From Cristatella mucedo (Eukaryota; Bryozoa; Phylactolaemata; Cristatellidae): a DNA stretch of 64,000 bases. Shown here piece after piece: positions 23,483 to 63,363 of this stretch. Location of the stretch: the NCBI GenBank assembly GCA_009760855.2, contig WPIO01000031.1:2483001-2547000 (forward strand), given 5' to 3'. The translations under genes and the position numbers were made by a program. The notes beneath the pieces were generated by a model. It had not been told where the DNA came from and did no database searches. It saw only the letters and a list, made by a program, of their open reading frames with translations. The number at the start of each line of letters is the position of its first letter. Positions within the stretch are counted from its first letter, which is position 1.

Positions 23483-23660
23483 TTAGAAACCGTTCACGAG
23501 GCGCCAGACTGTCGTCGAGTGCTGCAGTTGGAACATGCCGTACTCGTCGTTGAGTTCGTCTAGGCACGTGAGCAGGCTGCCGAGCCACGACTCGGGCACG
23601 CCGACGATACCGACCTTGTCGTAGGTCTGCTTCGCATACATGCTCAGCGTGTAGAATAAC
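23483..23660 (-). CDS. RNF213: RNF213-like terminal exon 35 and stop
   Basis: 178 nt, phase 2 in, acceptor gtcatag, ends TAA at 23483-23485. Encodes [33 protein letters not shown] and [12 protein letters not shown]. It corresponds to the RNF213 end (L.DTL..Y.........P...P..LLL...V..W). The junction with exon 34 restores one Pro codon, supporting the splice. Confidence 0.88.

Positions 23661-63363: not shown

What the first reader, a model, noticed from the sequence alone, without database searches (positions are those of the whole stretch)
23483..63363. RNF213/mysterin gene in an intron-rich invertebrate genome, 35 phase-consistent exons
Reading the minus strand by splice sites reveals the whole C-terminal ~40% of RNF213, in order from TEQQF to the stop codon. 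Codon phases match at 33 of 34 junctions. The gene gives a non-vertebrate view of an enzyme known mainly from human disease and antibacterial defence. The sequence shows the exons and motifs; the family name rests on recalled RNF213 motifs.
Basis: partly seen in the sequence, partly recalled or inferred. Interest (0 to 1): 0.75.

Follow-up and report, generated by a model that had tools for sequence, protein, structure and literature searches.

The report
RNF213 gene with degenerate RING finger
The sequence holds the last 40% of a giant animal enzyme gene, RNF213, one of several copies in this genome; this copy keeps the zinc finger thought to do the chemistry but seems to lack part of the RING finger that gave the enzyme its name.

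Summary
The minus strand from 63363 to 23483 carries the C-terminal part of an RNF213 gene. I model 34 exons (not 35), 2033 codons plus TAA, with no internal stop and 33 of 33 junctions in phase. Draft exon-joined pieces hit only RNF213 chains at E 0.001 (two of the four pieces lie in the window). The gene runs on upstream, where AAA3 and AAA4 lie. A second RNF213 gene on the same contig has the same 34-exon layout, at 40.5% identity (the match was partly hand-guided). A AAA4 probe finds five loci, all on contig C244. Invertebrate RNF213 genes are already in print, so the gene is an ordinary family member. Less ordinary: this copy's RING exon lacks the first Cys-x2-Cys zinc pair that copies 2 and 3 and a solved mammalian RNF213 keep, and it stays under the cut-off of the five Pfam RING models it matches. 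Its RZ finger keeps 6 of 6 key positions at mouse spacing. Papers assign RNF213's ligase activity mainly to RZ. Best reading: a working, RZ-driven paralogue with a degenerate RING. No RNA evidence was available.

The parts
63169..63363 (-). exon 1 of the window part (phase 0 in, 0 out), ...SATPDAVLR...
62778..62923 (-). exon 2 (0,2), holds TEQQF
59862..60124 (-). exon 3 (2,1)
58734..58862 (-). exon 4 (1,1)
58246..58289 (-). exon 5 (1,0), short, weakly conserved
57852..58038 (-). exon 6 (0,1), GC donor
57390..57540 (-). exon 7 (1,2)
56731..56932 (-). exon 8 (2,0)
56509..56647 (-). exon 9 (0,1)
54177..54340 (-). exon 10 (1,0)
53009..53206 (-). exon 11 (0,0)
52558..52742 (-). exon 12 (0,2)
52341..52461 (-). 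exon 13 (2,0), same length as in copy 2 but low similarity (E 0.48)
50628..50728 (-). exon 14 (0,2), before the RING; its TATGG|GT donor is shared with copy 2
49688..49885 (-). exon 15 (2,2), RING exon: Cys at codons 9, 23, 28, 31, 45, 48 and His at 13, 24, 25; the C1-x2-C2 pair (codons 8 and 11 in copies 2 and 3) is absent
46799..47062 (-). exon 16 (2,2)
42393..42510 (-). exon 17 (2,0)
41862..42184 (-). exon 18 (0,2)
41020..41257 (-). exon 19 (2,0)
40288..40398 (-). exon 20 (0,0)
35837..35887 (-). exon 21 (0,0), short
34573..34764 (-). exon 22 (0,0)
34373..34469 (-). exon 23 (0,1)
30923..30957 (-). exon 24 (1,0), first part of the RZ finger, [11 protein letters not shown]
30237..30337 (-). 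exon 25 (0,2), second part of the RZ finger, [22 protein letters not shown]
29806..30140 (-). exon 26 (2,1)
29599..29681 (-). exon 27 (1,0)
28907..29360 (-). exon 28 (0,1)
28521..28797 (-). exon 29 (1,2)
27458..27764 (-). exon 30 (2,0)
26536..26736 (-). exon 31 (0,0)
26304..26393 (-). exon 32 (0,0)
25363..25586 (-). exon 33 (0,2)
23483..23660 (-). exon 34 (2, stop), last exon, TAA at 23485-23483; weak similarity to the last exon of copy 2 (E 5.1)

Best explanation
This is the C-terminal 2033 codons of an intact RNF213 (mysterin) gene of a non-model animal, one of several copies on one contig. By homology it should work as RNF213 does: a dynein-like AAA core with ATP-hydrolysing AAA3 and AAA4 drives assembly on target surfaces, and the RZ finger takes ubiquitin from a cysteine-reactive E2 on its own cysteine (human C4516 position) and passes it to the substrate. 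In this copy the RING cannot form a normal first zinc site, so I infer that it has little or no RING activity and that the enzyme runs on the RZ finger alone. Shown here: exons, phases, homology, RZ and RING residues. Inferred: expression, ligase activity, any immune role.
For: At E 0.001 the pieces from the AAA, E3, RZ and C-terminal parts hit 9 of 9 RNF213 chains each, up to 7e-210. 34 exons, no internal stop, 33 of 33 junctions in phase, matched one by one in a second gene of the same contig. Walker A and B of AAA3 (GETGCGKTRL, LFLDEANTT) and AAA4 (GKPGSSKSLA, VVLDEVGLAEDS), all upstream of the window, align with mouse 6TAX/6TAY. ZnF_RZ scores 65.2 bits, cut-off 27, with 6 of 6 key Cys/His at mouse spacing (roles from passages of PMC11549300). 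RING: codons 8 and 11 are Cys in copies 2 and 3 but Ser and Gly here, with one Cys at codon 9; the five Pfam RING models that match stay below their cut-offs (best 22.6 of 27.9, starting at profile position 5), whereas copy 2, scanned as the RING exon alone, passes four. Mouse RNF213 without its RING auto-ubiquitylates like wild type (PMC7311170 section 8), and RING inactivation does not affect ubiquitylation of Salmonella or Listeria (passages of PMC11549300).
Against: No transcript data. The RING change rests on one exon of one assembly, and the other frame of that exon reads ...RVCPV just before C-A-G-D, which first led me to a frame-break reading. His at codon 13 could replace a zinc ligand. 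The RING is not idle in human: passages say the isolated RING is active in vitro and that its inactivation partly impairs Toxoplasma vacuole ubiquitylation, and that RING variants are linked to Moyamoya disease. A query joining both frames of the RING exon also hit TRIM2 and CBL (5 of 15 sequences), as a RING would. Exons 5, 13, 21 and 34 are short or weakly conserved. My first hand-made model of copy 2 broke frame from exon 8 on (88 stops); eight of its exon ends were then re-picked knowing the window's phases, and some window ends were chosen with copy 2 in view, so the phase match is not fully independent. The N-terminal 532 aa of my upstream draft hit no RNF213 structure.
Confidence: 0.85

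Rival explanations
1. An ordinary RNF213 gene whose RING is in truth complete; the missing Cys pair is a local assembly or consensus error, or a rare allele.
For: The other frame of the exon gives ...RVCPV, close to the C-S-I-C of a solved mammalian RNF213, so small indels could have hidden a C-x2-C.
Against: The exon is 198 nt like copy 2 and in phase with both neighbours; a single indel error would break the frame. A DNA search of the assembly found the exon only once, so there is no second haplotype to compare.
Confidence: 0.25
2. The RING is not lost but rewired: Cys at codon 9 and His at codon 13 replace the first Cys pair and still bind zinc.
For: C-x3-H lies in the right stretch, with nine residues between the His and the third ligand.
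Against: No Pfam RING model reaches its cut-off. A single-sequence AlphaFold model was uninformative (mean pLDDT 42.5), so this is hardly tested.
Confidence: 0.2
3. A decaying pseudogene.
For: The RING is degenerate and other copies exist in the genome.
Against: 2033 codons without a stop over 34 exons and conserved splice sites and phases; more mismatches at third codon positions (65.3%) than at second (35.6%) against copy 2, although that constraint could be older than a recent decay; RZ and AAA motifs kept.
Confidence: 0.05

Closest known systems
Mammalian RNF213 (mouse 6TAX/6TAY, chains 8S24 and 9JW1, which I take to be human from recall)
   Same: Order of domains, AAA3 and AAA4 motifs, position of the RING, RZ finger spacing, C-terminal part.
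   Different: The first RING zinc pair is missing here; two extra residues lie between the remaining Cys and the third ligand.
RNF213 copy 2 in the same genome (C244:3590001-3754000)
   Same: 34 of 34 exons with the same phases in the C-terminal part, in a model partly guided by the window gene; complete RZ finger.
   Different: 40.5% identity over 1992 aligned residues; RING complete with C-Y-S-C.
RNF213 copy 3 (C244 ~3.84-3.90 Mb; only small pieces read)
   Same: AAA4, exon 16 and post-RZ exons alike.
   Different: RING complete, with Lys after its last Cys; its second RZ exon reads C-H-C where the others have C-x2-C. Its first RZ exon was not seen.
Bivalve RNF213 genes (PMC11299980, PMC9993606; passages read)
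   Same: RNF213 genes in invertebrates, reported as expanded in symbiotic bivalves.
   Different: The passages I saw compare no RING or RZ residues.

Membership tests
RNF213 family | Sequence homology along the E3 module and AAA core | tested here: met
   6.8e-44 to 7e-210; the AAA core lies upstream of the window
RNF213 family | RZ zinc finger with equivalents of C4505, H4509, C4516, C4525, C4528, H4537 | tested here: met
   PF20173 65.2 bits; 6 of 6 positions
RNF213 family | AAA3 and AAA4 with Walker A and B motifs | tested here: met
   Motifs aligned; ATPase activity not testable here
RNF213 family | RING-derived exon at the conserved place before the '[15 protein letters not shown]' exon (its zinc ligands are treated below, since RING deletion leaves RNF213 auto-ubiquitylation as wild type) | tested here: met
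RNF213 family | N-terminal CBM20 carbohydrate-binding domain (described for human) | tested here: inconclusive
   Upstream exons conserved with copy 2, but no Pfam or RNF213 PDB match
RNF213 family | Ubiquitin ligase and ATPase activity | not testable with these tools
   needs protein
Canonical RING E3 ligases (C3HC4) | Eight zinc ligands, C-x2-C ... C-x-H-x2-C-x2-C ... C-x2-C | tested here: not met
   First pair absent; the five Pfam RING models matched stay below cut-off
Canonical RING E3 ligases (C3HC4) | Lys/Arg linchpin after the last Cys | tested here: not met
   Gly here (that the linchpin is the residue straight after the last Cys is recalled); Leu in mouse RNF213

The most novel reading that the evidence does not exclude
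The RNF213 copies in this genome have divided the two ligase domains between them: the window copy is an RZ-only enzyme with a decayed RING, copy 3 keeps a full RING with a Lys linchpin but has an altered RZ finger, and copy 2 keeps both. This would be a natural separation of RING and RZ functions, and would let the still unclear role of the RNF213 RING be read from differences between genes.
Probability: 0.2. Interest if true: 0.65.

Novelty: new variant of a known kind. Interest (0 to 1): 0.42.

Why it matters
The function of the RNF213 RING is called elusive (passages of PMC12440826): it seems dispensable for LPS- and auto-ubiquitylation, yet Moyamoya mutations hit it and the Shigella effector IpaH1.4 binds it. 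An otherwise intact RNF213 that lacks the first RING zinc pair but keeps all six RZ positions would be an evolutionary test of that dispensability, with more complete copies on the same contig for comparison. It is still a member of a well-studied family, and invertebrate RNF213 genes are known, so I score it moderate.

Tried and rejected
Frame break in the RING exon: I first thought that the first two Cys lay in different frames (note). The upstream exon turned out to extend to ...VIISIYG with the same TATGG|GT donor as copy 2, which makes the RING exon phase 2 and the frame continuous, so I dropped this.

False exons: draft exons of the gene finder at window coordinates 77844 and 66126 (outside the window) match several places in the copy-2 region and were dropped as repeats. 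Those at 62162, 61831, 60710, 37973, 37694 and 37333 were dropped because they had no counterpart at the right place in copy 2. An ORF pair at 25142 matched copy 2 but also a second place and was dropped when last exons were found in both genes. 'SINE' in my notes is a recalled label, not a test.

First model of copy 2: out of frame from exon 8 on, 88 stops; put right by choosing proper splice sites, no base changed.

CBM20: an upstream exon (window coordinate 152907-152699) looks like CBM20 from memory; Pfam gave nothing and the PDB search no RNF213, so it is not claimed.

AlphaFold on the RING exon alone: mean pLDDT 42.5, not used. dN/dS: the Nei-Gojobori routine returned dN 0.59 and dS -1, which I take as saturation, so no ratio. 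Species: a COX1 match with 11 TGA lies on contig C688 but could not be fetched; the species stays unknown.

Other copies: three RING queries found RING exons on C244 only for the window gene, copy 2 and copy 3; for the copies near 2.17 and 2.37 Mb none was seen, and 1.5 kb beside exon 16 of the 2.37 Mb copy showed none by eye. 1.2 kb beside its post-RZ exon showed no RZ finger by eye. Neither shows absence.

Literature: searches listed no title on a RING-deficient RNF213; only the top rows of each were seen, and the library holds only open-licence PMC papers. The one hit for 'degenerate RING' (PMC13061254, passages) uses the term for U-box and SP-RING classes, not for RNF213.

Full report
What was checked. 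The finding claims that the minus strand from 63363 to 23483 reads, by splice sites, as the C-terminal 40% of RNF213. The window is C244:2483001-2547000 of a 572 Mb assembly in 688 contigs. I wrote a simple exon-intron model and ran it on the minus strand of the window and the DNA upstream of it. Joined pieces of its draft output, searched against PDB sequences, hit RNF213: 7e-210 and 1.4e-174 for two pieces upstream of the window that hold AAA3 and AAA4, 8.1e-80 for the hinge, RING and E3 part and 6.8e-44 for the C-terminus, both in the window. In each of these four searches 9 of 9 listed sequences at E 0.001 were RNF213. A later query that joined both frames of the RING exon hit RNF213 in 10 of 15 sequences and TRIM2 or CBL in 5, as expected for a RING.

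A second gene gives a check on the frame. One of four ZnF_RZ matches in the genome lay 1.2 Mb away on the other strand of the same contig. Reading 110 kb there, later 54 kb more, showed most exons of the window gene again, in order. With both genes side by side I fixed 34 exons in the window: 6102 coding bases, 2033 codons plus TAA, no internal stop, AG before every exon, GT after 32 of 33 and GC after one. The phase at each of the 33 junctions equals that in the second gene, which itself gives 2062 codons and a stop. My first hand-made version of the second gene was out of frame from exon 8 on; eight ends were then re-picked among nearby splice sites knowing the phases of the first, and some ends of the first were chosen with the second in view. 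The phase match is thus partly guided; the long stop-free frames are the firmer evidence. The two proteins share 806 of 1992 aligned residues (40.5%), and third codon positions differ more (65.3%) than first (46.8%) and second (35.6%), as expected under constraint on the protein. The same ORF chaining gives 1610 bits on the claimed strands and 389, 394 and 504 bits in three strand controls, which share repeats.

The gene beyond the window. Conserved exons continue upstream to window coordinate about 152900 (C244 about 2635900), so the gene spans at least 129 kb and the window holds only its last part. AAA3 and AAA4 Walker motifs lie there and align with mouse. The N-terminal 532 residues of my draft match no solved RNF213, so the carbohydrate-binding domain reported for human RNF213 is neither shown nor excluded.

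RZ finger. Pfam ZnF_RZ scores 65.2 bits (cut-off 27). The stretch [33 protein letters not shown], split over exons 24 and 25, aligns without gaps with mouse. All six positions named in PMC11549300 (three Cys and one His for zinc, the proposed catalytic Cys and general-base His; passages) are kept, here and in copy 2.

RING. Copies 2 and 3 have Cys at RING-exon codons 8 and 11 and the third ligand at codon 23; a solved mammalian RNF213 has C-S-I-C at the same spacing. The window gene has a single Cys at codon 9, Ser at 8 and Gly at 11, and keeps the other six ligands (codons 23, 25, 28, 31, 45, 48). Five Pfam RING models match it and none reaches its cut-off, while copy 2 passes four; the window RING was scanned inside a 1457-residue piece and copy 2 as the exon alone. 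A 501-base DNA query around the exon finds only itself in the assembly. So either the first zinc site has been lost or rewired, or the assembly is wrong in these few bases. I favour a real change because exon length and phase are kept.

How it probably works. I read passages of PMC12440826 and PMC11549300 and the E3 section of PMC7311170. They report that RNF213 auto-ubiquitylation works best with the cysteine-reactive E2 UbcH7 and is unchanged when the RING is deleted, that RZ mutants fail to ubiquitylate Salmonella, Listeria and the Toxoplasma vacuole, and that RING inactivation has no effect on the two bacteria and a partial one on the vacuole. Against a purely idle RING stand its activity in isolation and its disease variants. 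A copy with intact AAA motifs and RZ finger and a degenerate RING should still be an active, RZ-driven ligase. Expression, activity and any immune role are inferred from homology.

The family in this genome. A AAA4 probe finds five loci, three exons each, all on C244: about 2.17, 2.37 and 2.55 Mb on the minus strand (the last is the window gene) and 3.69 and 3.84 Mb on the plus strand; the search scores only its best candidates, so five is a lower bound. Copy 3 has a complete RING ending C-P-Q-C-K, but the second exon of its RZ finger reads C-G-K-P-F-T-L-G-N-C-H-C, one residue short between the last two zinc Cys. Whether the copies have divided RING and RZ functions is only an idea: two copies could not be read at these exons, and the first RZ exon of copy 3 was not seen.

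Organism. Sixty-two nuclear-receptor zinc-finger matches point to an animal. No MHC class I match was found, but that search had no positive control. The species is unknown.

Known or new. RNF213 genes are reported from invertebrates and as expanded in symbiotic bivalves (passages of PMC11299980 and PMC9993606). The gene is a member of a known family. A RING-deficient but RZ-complete RNF213 appeared in none of the listings I saw, which come from a limited library.

Noticed in passing
C244 ~2.17, 2.37, 2.55, 3.69, 3.84 Mb: Five RNF213 AAA4 loci on one contig, three on the minus and two on the plus strand.
   Followed up: partly
L036:226-324 (C244:3898725 onward): RZ finger exon of RNF213 copy 3 has C-x1-C instead of C-x2-C between its last two zinc Cys.
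   Followed up: partly
L001 (C518:1694878-1694991), L002 (C662:709832-709930): Two further ZnF_RZ matches outside C244; the first reads ...GHIYCIGECGGATVEAKCPECKSVIGGSSH. A ZNFX1-like gene is a guess from recall.
   Followed up: no
window coordinate 128580-128227 (C244:2611227-2611580) and C244:3634083-3634436: An ORF 90.7% identical between the two RNF213 loci, far above their exons; I take it for a retroelement from recall.
   Followed up: no
C688:15615-16955; C166, C83, C549, C299: COX1 match with 11 in-frame TGA on C688, and partial COX1 matches on other contigs that may be nuclear copies.
   Followed up: no
window 1-23000: Six of the 13 ORFs of 120 aa or more that one search lists left of the gene were tested with Pfam and gave no match up to E 0.1.
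   Followed up: partly
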